35,522 nucleotides of DNA from a virus, in the IMG/VR virus record IMGVR_UViG_3300018432_000030, positions 1 to 35,522 of that record. The stretch is one strand, 5' to 3'. The position numbers were made by a program, and so were the translations under genes. Below the pieces are notes generated by a model. It searched no databases. It had not been told where the DNA came from and saw only the letters and a list, made by a program, of their open reading frames with translations. Shown in pieces: positions 2,507 through 23,200 of this stretch; position 1 is the stretch's first letter, and every line of letters starts with the position of its first letter.

Positions 2507-2567
2507 CGGGTCCGTCCGTTCGGGTCGCGCGCGGTCAGTTACTTACGTCCACTACTTAGCCATTGGT

Positions 2568-2595
2568 TTGGTCTATGGGTTGGTCTATGGGTTGG
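2568..2595. repeat. tandem 12-mer repeat, TTGGTCTATGGG x2
   Basis: Two perfect tandem copies of TTGGTCTATGGG (2568-2579 and 2580-2591) are followed by a partial third copy TTGG (2592-2595). They lie in the least GC-rich intergenic stretch of the left arm, immediately beside the palindromic iterons, where a DNA-unwinding element would be expected in an iteron origin. Confidence 0.85.
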
Positions 2596-2599
2596 TGGG

Positions 2600-2725
2600 G
2601 GCTCACGGTGAGCCCTGGTTCGGCTCACCGTGAGCCCTGGTTGGCTCACGGTGAGCCCTGGTCCCCCGTCGATCACGGCTCACCGTGAGCCCTGCTCGGG
2701 TCGGGATCACGGCTCACAGTGACCC
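2600..2725. repeat. five copies of palindrome GGCTCAC(S)GTGAGCC
   Basis: Copies lie at 2600-2614, 2622-2636, 2643-2657, 2677-2691 and 2711-2725. The first four are GGCTCAC[G/C]GTGAGCC, a palindrome with 7-bp arms about one central base; the fifth is diverged (GGCTCACAGTGACCC). Each is followed by CTG. The first three start 22 and 21 bp apart, about two helical turns; the last two intervals are exactly 34 bp and carry ATCAC in front. Copies 4 and 5 are inside the 3' end of the winged-helix gene. Confidence 0.9.
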
Positions 2726-3068
2726 CTGATCGGCTGTAGTTCACGACCCGCTCGAGGACGTCGTCGGGGATCGCGAGCCGGTATTCGTCGGCGATCCCGC
2801 GGCGCCCCATCCGTGACCCCTCGACGACCCGCACGAGCAGCCCGACGTCGCGCAGCAGCCGGTATGCGCGCTTGACGGTCGCGAGCGACAGCCCCGTGTC
2901 GGCGACGGTGCGCTCGTTCCCCGGGAACACCTCGCCCCCTTTCGCGTCCGCGTAGGTCGCCGCGTTCAGCGCAACGTGCTTCGCGCTCGACGGCAGCGGC
3001 AGCGCCTTGATCACCCGTTCCCACTCGTACCGCAGCGGCGGCTCGTCGACGGCACGACGACGGGTCAT
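2673..3068 (-). CDS. winged-helix DNA-binding protein, putative replication initiator (131 aa)
   Basis: Residues 13-100 read as a winged helix-turn-helix of the HTH_36/replication-initiator type: a helix with YEWERVIKALPLPSSAKHVA, the VFPGNERTVADTGLS turn, the recognition helix LATVKRAYRLL (62-72), and a β-wing GLLVRVVEGSRMGRR closing with EYRL. The ATG overlaps the previous stop (ATGA). The last 18 or so codons are made of two of the palindromic repeats, so the polar C-terminal tail is largely a by-product of the DNA sites. The family and the repeats suggest it binds the adjacent iterons to start replication or to control its own gene; this is inference. Confidence 0.75.
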   Translation of the reverse strand: MTRRRAVDEPPLRYEWERVIKALPLPSSAKHVALNAATYADAKGGEVFPGNERTVADTGLSLATVKRAYRLLRDVGLLVRVVEGSRMGRRGIADEYRLAIPDDVLERVVNYSRSGVTVSRDPDPSRAHGEP

Positions 3069-4737: not shown

Positions 4738-6332
4738 GTCATGCCGCCGAACAGGTCGAGCGCGATCGGTTTCGACAGGCGGGCCACGATCAGCGGCAGG
4801 TGCGACGCTTCCCGCTCGATCGCGACGCAGCGGAACCCGTCGACGATGCACGCCTCAGCGGTTGTGCCGGTGCCGGCGAACGGGTCGAGCACGACCCCGC
4901 CCGGTGGGGTCACGAGTCTGACCATCCACCTGAGTAATTCGACGGGCTTCACAGTTGGGTGCGCGGTCGTGGTCCCGTCCTCGTCGACGGCGGTCGGACG
5001 TTCCCGGGTGGGGGCTTTCGCCTGGTAGCGGAACACGGGGAAAAACCGGGACGCGCCGCCCTCGTCCGCGTAGGTGTCGCGCTGCGTCTCGTAGCCCGCA
5101 GCAGCGTCCTTGCCGAACGTCGTCCGCTCACCCTTGGGTCGGGTGCCCGCCCGCATGGCGCCTGACTTGAGCGTGCCGCTCTGCTGGTCGAGTTCGTCGG
5201 CCACGTCGCCGTCCATCACCACGTTCGTCGGCCACCGGCCTCCTGCGGGGCGCTCGCGGCCTTTCGCCGCGTCTGACCATCCGCCGCCGTAGCCGTGTCC
5301 GGCGTCAACGCGCTTTCCGGTGGCCCCGCCGCTAGTCCGGTCGTCGCCGGTTCCGACCCGGCACCCGTCGATGTTCAGCGCCCCCGTGCCGTGCGCCAGG
5401 ATCGTGGCTGCGACCGTGCCCGACAGGGATTTGCGGGCCACCACGACCGGCTCGAACGCGGGCTTGAGTGCCGTCCCCCATCCCTGCCACTGCTGGGCGG
5501 CGGGAGTGGCAGGGGCGGTGATCGGGATGTCGTAGCCGCCGACACCACCCCGCTTGCGACCTTCGGCGGTCCATTCACCGCCAGGTGCCTTGCGGGTACC
5601 GATCACGTCCCGCTCAGCCTCGGCGCGCTCCACGACGGGTAAGTGGTCGTCGGACAGTTGCAGTCGCTCGCGCAGAACCTGCCAGTCGGCAATCGTCGGC
5701 ACGCGGGCACCTGCGGGGTCCTGCCGCTCCCAGTGCTCGCAGCCGTCGCGGTAACCGAACCAGGCGTTGACCTCGCCGCGGGTGAGCCCAACGGCTTCGC
5801 GGCGTTCGCGGATGTGGCGACCGAGGGCGTAGCGGTCCTCAAACTTGCGCCCATTGGCCTTGTCGATGGCCTTGGAAACGTCGAGCGACTTCGGGAACCC
5901 GGACCCGTACAGCCACGCGATCGAGTCGCGCACCTCGAACCCGGCATCCTCGACGGCGACGGCGAGCCGGTGCCACGTGCGGGTGCCGCCGAACGCGAGC
6001 AGGTGCCCGCCCGGTTTCAGTACCCGTAGACATTCCCGAGTCCACGGCCCGCACCACTCCCCGAACCGCAGCGACTCGACACGGCGGGTTCGGGCAGCGT
6101 CGGCGGCGTTGCTTGGGTTGTGATTGCCGCCGACATGATCGAACGTCGCACCCGCGGCGGGTGCCCGCCCCGTCTCGTTCGCGTAGGTGTCCCACTTTTG
6201 ACCCATGAACCCGAGCCCGTACGGCGGATCAGTGACGATCGCGTCGACGCTGCTATCGGGCATCGTCCGCATGACGTCGAGGCAGTCGCCGTGCCACACC
6301 GTGACCGACTCGTCCGCATAGAACGGGGTCAC
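4734..6332 (-). CDS. DNA methyltransferase with embedded XRE-like segment (532 aa)
   Basis: S-adenosylmethionine-dependent N4-cytosine/N6-adenine DNA methylase of β topology: the catalytic DPPY lies at 35-38, before the cofactor motif DPFAGTGTT at 483-491, with the HPTVKP block just upstream (458-463). GTG at 6332 overlaps the RecT stop (GTGA). Residues about 165-230 interrupt the catalytic domain with a helix-turn-helix-like stretch (GRHIRERREAVGLTRGEVNAWFG), and 320-430 hold a long glycine-rich insertion probably serving target recognition. No cognate restriction enzyme is adjacent, so it is probably an orphan methylase that protects phage DNA or marks it for regulation. The target base cannot be told. 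Confidence 0.9.
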   Translation of the reverse strand: MTPFYADESVTVWHGDCLDVMRTMPDSSVDAIVTDPPYGLGFMGQKWDTYANETGRAPAAGATFDHVGGNHNPSNAADAARTRRVESLRFGEWCGPWTRECLRVLKPGGHLLAFGGTRTWHRLAVAVEDAGFEVRDSIAWLYGSGFPKSLDVSKAIDKANGRKFEDRYALGRHIRERREAVGLTRGEVNAWFGYRDGCEHWERQDPAGARVPTIADWQVLRERLQLSDDHLPVVERAEAERDVIGTRKAPGGEWTAEGRKRGGVGGYDIPITAPATPAAQQWQGWGTALKPAFEPVVVARKSLSGTVAATILAHGTGALNIDGCRVGTGDDRTSGGATGKRVDAGHGYGGGWSDAAKGRERPAGGRWPTNVVMDGDVADELDQQSGTLKSGAMRAGTRPKGERTTFGKDAAAGYETQRDTYADEGGASRFFPVFRYQAKAPTRERPTAVDEDGTTTAHPTVKPVELLRWMVRLVTPPGGVVLDPFAGTGTTAEACIVDGFRCVAIEREASHLPLIVARLSKPIALDLFGGMT

Positions 6333-7495
6333 TGCTGCTGCTCGCGGTCGGCTGCCTCGAGGTCGCGCGCCTCGATCAGCGTCTCGACGACCTGAATGCA
6401 CGAGGACACCTCGGCGCGGTTCAGGTCGGTGCGGGTCGTGACGGGGCGCCGCAGTTCGGTCGTCAGCCACGCGTGCTGGTCCTCGTCGGACTCGACCCCG
6501 AGGTCGCGCAGCTTGCCGATCAGCGCGCCGATCGACCGCTGCGTCGCGGGACGCTGGTCGCCGACCGGGTCGGTTGGGTGCGACGGCTCGGCAGGTTCGG
6601 CGGGGCTGTCGTCCGGCGCCGGCGCCCGCTGCGAGGTGAGCGCGTCGGCGACGACGTCGTGCGAGTCGGGCGCCCCGAGCTCGTCGACGCTCACCGGCTG
6701 CTCGGCGGGGTCGAACTGCTCGCCCGCGGTCGTCTCCCCGCGCCTGATCGAGTCGGCGACGACCTGCAGCTGCGCGACGTCCTCGTCGTCCCACCGCTCG
6801 AGGGGGCGACCGACGCGCCGCTCGAGTTGGGTCAGGGTCACGTGCTGCCGCTCGAACCACTGCACCGCGTTGCGGCGCCGGTCGGCGAGCGGTATCCCGT
6901 CGCCGCGCTTGAGCGTCTCGCGCAGCGCCCGCTCGGCGCTGTCGACGAGCCACCGCGGCAGGGTCGCGAACACGCACTCGCGCATCGCCCTCGCGCCCGC
7001 GTTCTGGTTGTTCCGGTACACGTCCTGCAGGTCGATGATCGGCTGCCGCACCTTCCCGCGGCCACCGCCCGGGGCGGGCGCCATGATCTGGTGCGGCACT
7101 TGGAACGTGCGGGTCGCGCGGCTGTTGCGCTGCATGTCCCAGCAGAACGCTTGCACCTCGGACAGCCCGCGGTCGTCGTCGCGCCTTAACTCGTGCACCC
7201 CGTAGTCGACGTTTCCCCAGATGACGGCGAGCTCGCGGGCGAGGTGCACCGACAGTCCCTGCCCGCGGTTCGGTAGCGCCCAGAACGACACGCGGGCGAG
7301 GTCGAACGATCCCGTCGCGTCGGCGAGCTCGGCGCGCACCCGGTCGAGGTCCCGCGGGAACCGTTGCGCGACTTGCACCTGCGCGGCGACCTGCGCGACG
7401 GCGCGCGCCTGCTCGACGGCGACGACCGCCTCGAGCCGCTCGCCGTTCTGCCCGCCGAGCCGGTCGGCGACTGTGGCTAGTGCGTCCGTGGTCAT
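6329..7495 (-). CDS. RecT-like single-strand annealing protein (388 aa)
   Basis: Probable DNA-pairing protein that would anneal single strands exposed by the RecE-like exonuclease coded 1.5 kb upstream. Residues about 50-230 hold the core, with ELAVIWGNVDYGVHELRR, then VQAFCWDMQRN, and NNQNAGARAMRECVFATLP, a pattern found in actinobacteriophage RecT-like proteins. Residues about 255-320 are a flexible acidic, proline-rich linker; the C-terminal 70 residues look like a small separate domain. ATG overlaps the previous stop (ATGA). The pairing role is inferred from the family pattern and context. Confidence 0.75.
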   Translation of the reverse strand: MTTDALATVADRLGGQNGERLEAVVAVEQARAVAQVAAQVQVAQRFPRDLDRVRAELADATGSFDLARVSFWALPNRGQGLSVHLARELAVIWGNVDYGVHELRRDDDRGLSEVQAFCWDMQRNSRATRTFQVPHQIMAPAPGGGRGKVRQPIIDLQDVYRNNQNAGARAMRECVFATLPRWLVDSAERALRETLKRGDGIPLADRRRNAVQWFERQHVTLTQLERRVGRPLERWDDEDVAQLQVVADSIRRGETTAGEQFDPAEQPVSVDELGAPDSHDVVADALTSQRAPAPDDSPAEPAEPSHPTDPVGDQRPATQRSIGALIGKLRDLGVESDEDQHAWLTTELRRPVTTRTDLNRAEVSSCIQVVETLIEARDLEAADREQQQ

Positions 7496-12571: not shown

Positions 12572-12805
12572 TCACCCGATCGGGGGAGTCGTCGTGCGGG
12601 CGAGCCGCAGCAGGTGCTCGGGGGTCACCTCGAGCGCGCGGGCGAGCGCGTCGAGCTCGTCGATCGTCAGCTGCCGGTCGCCGTTCATGGCGCGGTGCAG
12701 CAGCGTCGGCGGCATGCCCGCCGCGCGGGCGAGCGCATTCTGCGACAGCCCCCGCGCGGACATGCGGCGGCGCACCTCGTCGGCGACAGCGTCGGCGAGC
12801 GTCAC
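12572..12805 (-). CDS. Cro/CI-like repressor (77 aa)
   Basis: Small XRE-family helix-turn-helix protein. Helices span 3-17, SQNALARAAG (21-30), the recognition helix PPTLLHRAMNG (32-42) and ELDALARALEVTPEHLL (50-66). It lacks any oligomerisation or cleavage domain, so it is Cro-sized rather than a full CI. GTG at 12805 is chosen because GAGAGGA lies upstream; a GTG at 12859 would overlap the divergent gene. It is the natural candidate ligand for the nearby GCGTC-N6-GACGC sites. Its gene starts 15 bp from the divergent plus-strand gene. Confidence 0.8.
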   Translation of the reverse strand: MTLADAVADEVRRRMSARGLSQNALARAAGMPPTLLHRAMNGDRQLTIDELDALARALEVTPEHLLRLARTTTPPIG

Positions 12806-12820
12806 GGGCGGGGTCCTCTC

Positions 12821-13435
12821 ATGCAGGTGAGTGTTCGCGTCGGACCCGTTCAGTTCCACGGCTGGCGCGCCTTCCTGTACTGGTCGTGCGCTGCGCTGGT
12901 CGTCCTGACGGCTCGGCTGCTGACGTGGTCAGTGTGCCGCCCCCGCACGTCGGGCGCGCTGCTCGGCTCGGCGGTACTGCTGTGGGGCGCACTCGAGCAC
13001 CCGGTCGCGACGCTGCTGCTGCTGTGGCTGCCGCTCGAGGTCGGGCACGCGTGGTCGGTGTACGCGCCGCTGTCGTGGCGCCGGCGGGCGCGGCCCGCCC
13101 TGCTGGCCCGTTGGCGGTCGCTGTGGCTGTACCGCCGCACATGGCGCACGGCGATGCAAGTCGCCGAGCTCGACAGGCGGGACCGCGACGGGCGGCTCGA
13201 GGTTCCGCGGCTCGGGCGGGTGCGGTGCACCGCGACCGCCGACGTGGTGCAGGTGCGTGCGCTGCTCGGGCAGCGGTTCAGCGACTATGAGACAGCCGGG
13301 CCGATGCTGGCGCACGTGTTCGGGGCGACCGGGTTCACGGTGCACCGCGGCGACGACCGCAGGTTGACCCTCGAGCTCGTCCGCGGCAAGCGTGGCCGCT
13401 CGTGGAACCGCGGCGCCCTCGACTACGGCGAATAG
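12821..13435 (+). CDS. plus-strand membrane protein resembling the N-terminal part of FtsK/TraB-type translocases (204 aa)
   Basis: Hydrophobic segments at about 16-36 and 46-72 predict two membrane helices, followed by a basic region (RRRARPALLARWRSLWLYRR) and a soluble domain of 90 residues. That domain (GRVRCTATADVVQVRALLGQ, then an ending with FGATGFTVHRGDDRRLTLEL) resembles the membrane-proximal domain of plasmid TraB/FtsK-SpoIIIE proteins of actinomycetes. The ATPase core (Walker A/B) is absent. It is divergent from the repressor gene and opposes the late genes, a position typical of genes expressed from a repressed phage genome. Exclusion or immunity is one possible role. The start (ATG 12821 or GTG 12827) has only a weak ribosome binding site. 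Confidence 0.7.
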   Translation: MQVSVRVGPVQFHGWRAFLYWSCAALVVLTARLLTWSVCRPRTSGALLGSAVLLWGALEHPVATLLLLWLPLEVGHAWSVYAPLSWRRRARPALLARWRSLWLYRRTWRTAMQVAELDRRDRDGRLEVPRLGRVRCTATADVVQVRALLGQRFSDYETAGPMLAHVFGATGFTVHRGDDRRLTLELVRGKRGRSWNRGALDYGE

Positions 13436-20215: not shown

Positions 20216-23200
20216 GTGCCCGCCCCCGCGAGGAACTCGTCGCGCCGCTGCTCGCGTGCCACGAGCGCGGCGACCTCGGCGGGTCCGACGACCCCCGACA
20301 CGTTGACGGTTCGGCTCGAGGACGTCGGCGCAGCGACGGCGCCGACCCCGCTCGTGTCGTACGCGGGCGGGGTGTAGCCGACCGCGCCGGCGCCGCGCAC
20401 GCCCGTGTCGACGTCGACCGCGGCCTGCAGCGACTGCACCGCCTGGGAGTCGGCGAGCGCCGCGAGCTCGGCGGCGACGACCGGACGCATGGACGCGATG
20501 CCCGCGGCGAGCCCCTCGCCGATCGACGTCCCGACCCCCTCGAACACCTTCGACGGCGACCTGATCCCGAGCCGCCGTTTCACAGCGTCGGTCAGCTGCC
20601 GGGCGAGCCGGTCGGCTGCCTGCGCGAGCCCCTTCGACTGCTGCGACAGCCCGTTGACGAGCCCTTGCGCGGCGTCGACCCCCGCCTGATACAGCCGTTT
20701 CGTCGCGTCACTGCCGAGCCCCTTAGACGCGCCGCTGATCTTCGACTGCAACGCGTTCACCTGTTTGATCGTTTTCGGTCCGCCCGCGAGCAGCGCGTCG
20801 GCGGTCGCCCCGCCCGCCTCGACCCCCGCCTCGGCGATCTGCTTGTACACGTCCTGCGATACGCCCAGCTTCGCGAGCTTCGCCAGCTGCGCCCGGAACC
20901 GCGTGATCGCGGTCAGCCGCTGCTGCAGTTCGTCGACGAGGACGCGCGGGCTGCCCGCCGTCTTGATCGCGGTCAGGCTCGCGAACTGAAGCGCGCTGCT
21001 GCGCACCGACGCCGCGAAGTCGGTCCGCATCTTGACCGCGTCGGCGAGCTTGTCGCGTGCCACCTCGAGTCGCTTTGCGATCTGGTCGCGGCTCTTGGCG
21101 AGCGCGATCAGTTTGTCGTCGGAGCGGTTCAGGACGTCGATAGCGTCGAGTGCTTTCTGCGCCGACGCTAGATCGCTGTTCTTTAGCGCCGCGTGGAACG
21201 CTTTCACGAGCTCGGCGCCGAGCTTCTTGGACGCCGCTTTTACTTCCTTTTCCGATCCGTCGATTCCCTTTATCAGACCCTGCCCGATGTTCACGCCGTA
21301 CTTCTTGAATACCTTCGACGGCGACCTGATGCCTAGCGCACTCTCGAACGGGCCACGAATCCATCCCGGCAGCTTGTTGAGGAAAAATCGCCCGATCGAC
21401 GAGAGCAGCGACCCCGCCCCGTTCAGCAGCCCCTGAATCATGTCTTTACCCTTTTGGTACAGGGTCGATCCGAGACTGCCGAGCGCTGACCCGACCTTGC
21501 CCGGCAGCCCCTTAAAAAAGTTCACGACGGAACTAATGCCGCTGCTGATGGCGCGACCAGCAGCCGCCATCGCATTGTTAAACGCGATCCGCAGATTCAG
21601 CCCGAGCGTTTCGGCACCCCGAACGAACCGCTGCGGCAACGCCTTAAACCATTTGATGACGTCGTCGCCCCACACGAAAAAATACGTCTTGATATTGTTA
21701 AACGCTGTACTGATGGCGCCCCCGATACGGGAACCGCCCGCCGTGAACCCCCGCGCAAACCCGCCGATAATGTCGCCGACCCACCCGACGACCTTATCGG
21801 CGACCTTCTTGATCGCCGTCACGAACCACGCCAGCAGCCGCCCGATCAGCGGGATTTTCGCGAGCACCTCGGCGACCTTCGCGACCACCTTCCCGGGCAG
21901 GAACGCGATCGCCAGAATCCCCATAACCACGGCGAACCAGTTATCCGCCAGCCCCGACAACAGCCCCATTAGGTCGAAATTCAGGATGCCGGTCGCCAGC
22001 CCGACGAGCATCGTCGGCACCTGCTCGCCGAGTTTCATCGCCAGCCCGAACCAGTCGATCTGGTCGAACAGGTTCCCCAGCGCCGTGAACATGTCCCCTG
22101 CCAGGGTGCCGAGACTGCCGAGCGCAGTCTGTACGGCGGTCACGATCCCGGTCCCGATCCCTGACCAGTCACCCGAGTTAGCCATGTCGAGCAGGGTCTG
22201 CAGCTTGGGCAGCACCTCCCCGCCGATCAGGTCGACGAAAGTCGACTGCAACCCGCGGGCGAACGTGCCGAGCGTGTTCGACGCGGTGTTGCCGAGCGCC
22301 TCGTCGAGGTCCTCGGCTTTGCCCTTCGTGTCGTCCATGCCGGGTCCGACGTTCGCGAGCGACCCGAGGAACGCGGGAATCTGATCGACCGATAGATCCT
22401 CGAGGGGGGTGCCGAACAGTGCGACCGCCTGCGCCGCCCGGTCGGTCGGATCCTTCACGTTGAGCAGCGCCTGCGCGATCTGCTGAACGGCGGTCTGCGC
22501 GCCGGCGCCGCCCGTCGCGATCGCCTCGCCCATCGCCTGCGCGTCGAGCCCAAGGTCGGTGAGCACGGGCGCGGTCGCGGCGAGGTCCGAGCCGACCAGG
22601 ATCGTAAGCTCTTTCAGCGCGTCGCCGACCTTGTCGAGCACGACCGGCCCGCCCTCGGCTGCGGACGTGAGCAGCCCGAATGCCTGCTCGCCCGTGTAGC
22701 CGAGCGCCCGAAAATTCGTGCCGTACTCGGTCAGGATCGCGGGCAGTTCCTCCCGCATCGCCGCGGGCACCTTCTGGTACGCGGCGGTCATCATGTCGAA
22801 CCCCGCGGTCGCGTCGGGCACTAGCCCGTTCTTGATCAGCACACCGACGGTGCCGACCGCCTCGTTCACGTCGGTACCGAACGCACTCGCGAAGTTCAGT
22901 GCGTCCCGCGTCGCTGTCTTCACGGCGGCGCCGCTCGCGTCGCGCATCCCCTCGATCGACGACACGACCGCGCCGACCGCGTCGCTCACCGTTTCCATGC
23001 TGTCGCCGTAGTTCGCGGCGTACAGGTCGCCCGCGACCTTCCCGGCTTTCGCTGTCTCGGCGGGATCGAGCCCCAGCTGCGCGCCGAGCTTCGCGGTCTG
23101 CGTTTCCTTGCTCAGCGCCTCGACGAACCCGGCGCCGACCGCCAGCCCCGCCCCCGCGGCGACCCCCGCGATCTTCCCGAACATGCCCGACACGCGGTCG

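What the first reader, a model, noticed from the sequence alone, without database searches (positions are those of the whole stretch)
2530..2730. Putative iteron origin overlapping the 3' end of its own DNA-binding gene
Five copies of GGCTCAC[G/C]GTGAGCC are spaced by 22, 21, 34 and 34 bp. The outer two are embedded in the last 18 codons of a winged-helix gene, and a less GC-rich stretch with tandem 12-mers follows. This mirrors λ O/ori and plasmid Rep/iteron layouts. No polymerase or helicase was recognised, so the phage probably recruits host replication proteins here.
Basis: partly seen in the sequence, partly recalled or inferred. Interest (0 to 1): 0.8.

Follow-up and report, generated by a model that had tools for sequence, protein, structure and literature searches.

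The report
Phage origin inside its initiator gene
A complete-looking ~35-kb actinobacterial phage carries its probable DNA replication origin at the end of the gene for the small protein that probably starts replication there, an arrangement like phage lambda's that also occurs, with changed DNA 'letters' but the same layout, in dozens of other phages and prophages.

Summary
In detail: four perfect 15-bp palindromes plus one two-mismatch copy, spaced 22, 21, 34, 34, straddle the stop codon of a 131-aa winged-helix gene on the minus strand. The origin reading is well supported, though not proven. The closest relative (L005, 54% identical protein) keeps gene, place and spacing although its repeats have diverged. 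In 42 phage and prophage homologues, repeat arrays follow the winged-helix codons (33 stand out from the rest of their locus), usually with a destabilised tract (37); 20 of 22 perfect DnaA boxes lie in that zone. The 50 bp beyond the window's array are the least stable of the whole 35.5 kb. Repeat sequence co-varies with the recognition helix (partial Mantel r 0.25, p 0.0002). λ O has its iterons at the same place (codon 116; here ~113). It works like λ O/oriλ but is not an orthodox member: no Phage_rep_O match, no C-terminal helicase-recruiting domain, no P-like loader or DnaB, no DnaA box in this window. Such stripped-down initiators recur, e.g. on a Micromonospora phage-plasmid. New variant of a known kind. 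Helicase loading is open; a third conserved element, ACCGCGCGCGACCC, is unexplained.

The parts
2673..3068 (-). Initiator gene: 131-aa winged-helix protein; stop codon lies inside the repeat array
   Evidence: PHROGs phrog_1032 and phrog_270 'replication initiation protein', E 1e-7 and 8e-6; Pfam HTH_36 and RP-C below cut-off; AlphaFold model with helices and a two-strand wing, mean pLDDT 68
2711..2725 (-). Iteron 1 (degenerate, 2 mismatches), inside the gene, starts near codon 113
2677..2691 (-). Iteron 2, inside the gene
2643..2657 (-). Iteron 3, beyond the stop codon
2622..2636 (-). Iteron 4, beyond the stop codon
2600..2614 (-). Iteron 5, beyond the stop codon
2539..2598 (-). Putative DNA-unwinding element: G-poor strand CCACCAACCCATAGACCAACCCATAGACC; includes tandem 12-mers 2564-2587 and CCACCAACCCATA 2586-2598, shared exactly with L045
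   Evidence: 2539-2588 is the least stable 50-bp window of the record; CCACCAACCCATA in fetched loci only here and in L045/L074; ACCAACC 31 in the post-domain zone of 42 relatives against 1.8 expected, 0 on the other strand
2522..2535 (-). Third conserved element ACCGCGCGCGACCC, non-coding here
   Evidence: Among 76 loci found only at this place in the window, L005 and L012 and overlapping copies of them; variants next to a DnaA box in L114 and L045
2129..2506 (-). Next gene downstream, 125 aa, conserved in L005 (54%), no family match; possible accessory protein
6329..7495 (-). RecT-like single-strand annealing protein of the same early module
   Evidence: phrog_3657; RecT-annotated phage relatives
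8972..10063 (-). Exonuclease VIII-like protein (PD-(D/E)XK) of the same module; ORF coordinates, true start may be internal
   Evidence: phrog_412, PF12684, PF12705

Best explanation
The region 2522-2730 is the replication origin of this phage, and the 131-aa winged-helix protein encoded across its upstream part is its initiator. Dimers of the protein bind the five 15-bp palindromic iterons on the 3' side of their own coding sequence; the complex wraps and strains the DNA and opens the destabilised G-poor tract at 2539-2598; the host helicase and replisome are then loaded there. Shown by computation: the anatomy, conservation of place and spacing while the repeat sequence changes, the stability minimum, DnaA boxes in relatives, and co-variation of repeat and recognition helix. 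Inferred: binding as dimers, strand opening, and use of host helicase and polymerase. It works like lambda O/ori-lambda, with an initiator cut down to the DNA-binding domain.
For: Array real and unique in the record. Relative L005: protein 54% identical, array at the same place, spacing 34, 21, 22, 21, repeat half-site AGGGCTCAC kept while the right half has drifted. Family: 33 of 42 non-redundant homologues have an array in the top 6% of their locus (29 in the top 2%), against 3 of 16 long-ORF (480 aa or more) proteins that share the domain. Annotated lambda iterons start at codon 116 of O; here ~codon 113. 2539-2588 is the least stable 50-bp stretch of 35.5 kb; 37 of 42 relatives have such a minimum against 29% of control zones. 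Perfect DnaA boxes: 20 of 22 lie in this zone, 0.17 expected. Repeats most like the window's occur in L081, L080, L107, L104, L005 and L095, whose recognition helices are 53-67% identical to it; partial Mantel r 0.25, p 0.0002. L005, L012 and L013 proteins hit 'replication initiation O-like' families that lambda O also hits.
Against: No experiment. The window and L005 lack DnaA boxes. The protein has no C-terminal domain and no loader is recognised, so the loading step has no known agent. Relatives are not independent lineages, so the p-values are too small. 9 of 42 relatives fall outside the top 6% by the metric, some with arrays further downstream. PDB fold matches are those of any winged helix, E about 1e-2.
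Confidence: 0.87

Rival explanations
1. The array is an operator: the winged-helix protein is a transcription regulator that binds the palindromes to control the downstream gene (2129-2506) or itself.
For: Palindromic sites plus a small winged-helix protein fit a regulator, and the array lies upstream of the next gene.
Against: No promoter-like site in the region (sigma-70 type only). It does not explain the stability minimum, DnaA boxes in relatives, or arrays inside longer initiator genes of relatives with O-like family hits. Autoregulation could coexist with origin function.
Confidence: 0.07
2. The array is a partition centromere (parS-like) bound by the winged-helix protein.
For: Tandem sites next to a small DNA-binding gene; mycobacteriophage parS loci are tandem 8-bp repeats (PMC7157519).
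Against: No ParA-type ATPase in the window or in L005's record. Domain family hits are replication initiators, not partition proteins. DnaA boxes and a melting tract are not expected of a centromere.
Confidence: 0.03
3. The repeats are a by-product of codon or peptide repeats, or an RNA hairpin or terminator at the gene's 3' end.
For: Some copies are translated, and in phiGD34-2 the 33-bp unit gives a repeated peptide.
Against: Three of five copies lie beyond the stop codon and the copies fall in different codon phases. L074, L096 and L114 also stop inside or before the array. No terminator-like site found. The one Rfam match is far below threshold.
Confidence: 0.02

Closest known systems
Phage lambda O protein and ori-lambda (and Stx phages P27, 933W; PMC7466680)
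   Same: Winged-helix N-terminal domain; iterons start right after its codons (lambda codon 116, here ~113); 4-6 copies about 20-24 bp apart; easily melted tract on the downstream side; O binds as dimers in lambda.
   Different: Window protein has no Phage_rep_O match and no C-terminal P-binding half; array straddles the stop codon; two 34-bp spacings; unwinding tract is G-poor rather than strongly AT-rich; no P gene recognised.
Actinophage and prophage initiator genes of phrog_26991, phrog_270, phrog_1032 type (phiGD34-2 gp53, LittleTokyo gp44, Amycolatopsis L012)
   Same: Homologous winged helix, iteron array directly behind it, spacings near 21-22 and 32-36, downstream ACCAA-rich tract.
   Different: Most have a C-terminal extension (zinc-ribbon-like, or O/DnaT-like in LittleTokyo), and about a third of relatives carry DnaA boxes; the window has neither. 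Annotated only as helix-turn-helix proteins; no origin is annotated.
RA3 plasmid RepB and oriV (PMC9455977)
   Same: Origin mapped by experiment to the 3' end of the initiator gene plus adjacent AT-rich DNA.
   Different: Single truncated repeat at the gene end, different repeats; no homology tested.
repABC plasmid RepC (PMC3155836)
   Same: Origin lies within the initiator gene; weak Pfam RP-C similarity of the window protein (below cut-off).
   Different: No iterons and no DnaA boxes in repC.
Mycobacteriophage RepA prophage replicons (PMC7157519)
   Same: Actinophage, helix-turn-helix initiator, origin suspected within or next to repA.
   Different: RepA of 320-350 aa; the authors found no repeat motifs in the regions they examined next to repA.

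Membership tests
lambda O/ori-lambda | Winged-helix DNA-binding domain of the phage initiator group | tested here: met
   phrog_1032, phrog_270; L005 hits phrog_391 and phrog_678 shared with lambda O; model
lambda O/ori-lambda | Match to Pfam PF04492 Phage_rep_O | tested here: not met
   Only lambda O matched; window protein not
lambda O/ori-lambda | Iterons in the initiator gene right behind the winged-helix codons | tested here: met
   two copies in the gene, three just beyond
lambda O/ori-lambda | Easily melted tract next to the iterons | tested here: met
   Rank 1 least stable 50 bp of the record
lambda O/ori-lambda | C-terminal domain that engages a helicase loader | tested here: not met
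   Protein ends within about 18 codons of the start of the array
lambda O/ori-lambda | P/DnaC-like loader or phage DnaB gene | tested here: not met
   No DnaB_C match; no loader among the window ORFs scanned; not every short ORF was scanned
lambda O/ori-lambda | Initiator binds the iterons | not testable with these tools
   Indirect support only: repeat and recognition helix co-vary
lambda O/ori-lambda | Region drives autonomous replication | not testable with these tools
   Needs a plasmid assay
Iteron plasmid replicons with DnaA boxes | DnaA boxes at the origin | tested here: not met
   None with 1 mismatch or fewer near the array; present in 14 of 42 relatives
parS/ParABS | ParA-type ATPase | tested here: not met
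   PF13614 absent

The most novel reading that the evidence does not exclude
A self-sufficient minimal initiator: a 115-131-aa winged-helix protein with no C-terminal domain, no recognised loader gene and, in this phage, no DnaA boxes opens the origin and brings in the host helicase by an unknown route, perhaps through the third conserved element ACCGCGCGCGACCC or the conserved downstream gene. The short form recurs (window, L074, L096, Micromonospora L114).
Probability: 0.3. Interest if true: 0.7.

Novelty: new variant of a known kind. Interest (0 to 1): 0.55.

Why it matters
Thousands of actinophages are sequenced, yet very few with a mapped origin turned up in the papers searched. This gives a rule (look right behind the winged-helix codons for repeats spaced 21-22 or 32-36, then an ACCAACC tract) that predicts origins in dozens of phages and prophages, including those of Mycobacterium abscessus, and makes them directly testable. 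It also offers small replicons for plasmid tools in actinobacteria and asks how an initiator without a helicase-recruiting half works.

Tried and rejected
The window protein alone found no viral contigs relative; relatives came only through RecT and then alignments. The exact iteron pair is absent from viral contigs. GC skew is uninformative. Operator, centromere, terminator, RNA and peptide-repeat readings were considered and rejected as the main function. Tyrosine integrase absent, so attP is unlikely. PDB sequence search and fold search gave only generic winged-helix matches, including Rep and DnaD N-terminal domains at E about 0.02; lambda O itself has no solved relative in the PDB copy. 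Chymera gp44 itself is not followed by an array in the tested zone, although gp45 contains GGGGGACAGTGCCCC repeats. L049, L050, L090 and L091 homologues show no array. Literature searches found no description of this origin family; the library holds open-licence papers only.

Full report
Observation. The window (IMG/VR virus record G000, 35,522 bp, 71.5% GC) carries a minus-strand gene of 131 aa at 2673-3068. At its 3' end are 15-bp palindromes: four perfect copies and one with two mismatches, spaced 22, 21, 34, 34. Two are in the gene, three lie beyond its stop. No other copy with at most one mismatch exists in the record. A family of seven 10-mer hits in 240 bp was never reached in 3000 simulated windows (largest 5) or in other real windows (largest 5).

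The gene. PHROGs match 'replication initiation protein' families at E 1e-7 and 8e-6; Pfam gives only below-cut-off HTH_36 and RP-C. The AlphaFold model shows a winged helix followed by one helix (mean pLDDT 68). Viral-structure matches include phage helix-turn-helix proteins and a putative replication protein O; PDB matches are generic. The gene sits downstream of RecT and exonuclease VIII-like genes.

Closest relative. L005, from a 35,220-bp contig, is collinear with the window but its ends fall inside the terminase region and it bridges the window's two ends. Both records are therefore probably complete, circularly permuted genomes (inference). Its initiator is 54% identical. Its array has the same place and spacings 34, 21, 22, 21; AGGGCTCAC is kept while the right half-site has drifted, and its reading frame runs through the array before stopping. 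So spacing and position are conserved while the translation is not. Beyond the array, GACCAACYCAT repeats and ACTGACCGCGCGCGACCC are also conserved.

Wider family. Homologues in M. abscessus prophage phiGD34-2 (33, 33, 34, 22), Arthrobacter phage LittleTokyo (22, 22, 22 after a first 19), Amycolatopsis prophage L012 and Acinetobacter prophages L013/L014 (35, 23, 21, 21) carry different repeats in the same place. A search of about 1,180 actinobacterial genomes added over 30 more homologues. Of 42 non-redundant homologues (HMM E at most 1e-12), 33 have an array in the top 6% of windows in their own locus, 29 in the top 2%; of 16 long-ORF proteins with the same domain, 3 do. Mean copies are 5.2 against 2.4 in controls.

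Origin features beyond repeats. (1) The 50 bp at 2539-2588, directly behind the array, is the least stable stretch of the 35.5 kb; 37 of 42 homologues have a zone minimum in the lowest 2% of their locus, control 29%. (2) ACCAACC occurs 31 times in the zones against 1.8 expected, and never on the opposite strand. (3) Perfect DnaA boxes (TTRTCCACA) are concentrated in the zone: 20 of 22, where 0.17 are expected; in the Micromonospora element both boxes in 36.5 kb are there. The window and L005 have none. (4) CGCGCGCGA on the gene strand occurs 16 times against 0.5 expected; its role is unknown. In L114 and L045 a variant is followed within a few bases by a DnaA box.

Does this protein bind these repeats? 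The repeats most like the window's belong to L081, L080, L107, L104, L005 and L095, whose recognition helices are 53-67% identical to the window's although the rest of the domain is only 34-54% identical. Over 33 loci, repeat similarity follows recognition-helix similarity after correcting for the rest of the domain (partial Mantel r 0.25, permutation p 0.0002). Shared ancestry is only partly removed by this test.

Short initiators. The window protein, L074 (131 aa), L096 and the 115-aa protein of L114 end before or in the array; most homologues continue, often with a CPHGLP...CxxCRRG zinc-ribbon-like tail. L114 lies on a 58.7-kb linear plasmid record of Micromonospora that carries a terminase and YqaJ/RecT genes, i.e. 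probably a phage-plasmid; spacings 46, 45, 45, 21, 22. Other replication genes on it are not excluded.

Comparison with the known. Lambda iterons start at codon 116 of O; in lambdoid phages the AT-rich tract flanks them and O is a dimer (PMC7466680). RA3 oriV was mapped to the 3' end of repB (PMC9455977) and a repABC origin lies in repC (PMC3155836). For RepA mycobacteriophages the authors suspected an origin in or next to repA but saw no repeats (PMC7157519). The window's system works like lambda O/ori. It is not filed as lambda O itself, since PF04492 and the C-terminal domain tests were not met.

Limits. Binding, melting, helicase loading and origin use were not tested. Homologues are related, so p-values overstate significance. 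The array metric misses arrays that start more than about 100 bp behind the domain. The host is unknown.

Noticed in passing
window 2522-2535 (-); L005 14417-14430; L012 8607-8620; L114 ~20590; L045 ~2094: ACCGCGCGCGACCC is conserved beyond the unwinding tract whether coding or not; in L114 and L045 a variant is followed by a DnaA box. Function unknown.
   Followed up: partly
window 1-35522 versus L076/L005: The two ~35-kb contigs are collinear but circularly permuted relative to each other, suggesting complete genomes and headful packaging or circular assembly.
   Followed up: partly
window 12572-12859 (-): A repressor-like HTH gene is present, but no tyrosine integrase and no ParA were found; lifestyle unclear (serine recombinases not tested).
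   Followed up: partly
L114 (CP108834.1): Linear 58.7-kb Micromonospora 'plasmid' with terminase, RecT and the same origin type: probably a phage-plasmid.
   Followed up: partly
L009 6414-6462: LittleTokyo has four tandem 11-mers GAACCGTCCTT right after its iterons, like the window's tandem 12-mers.
   Followed up: no
L108/L113 (G813:C20): Two adjacent copies of the winged-helix domain appear in one 458-residue open frame, without an array in the tested zone.
   Followed up: no
L010 6853-7033: Streptomyces phage Chymera gp45 contains five GGGGGACAGTGCCCC repeats spaced 36, 36, 36, 25, one gene beyond the winged-helix homologue gp44.
   Followed up: no
window 21000-22000: GC drops to 61% inside the tape-measure gene, against 71.5% overall.
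   Followed up: no
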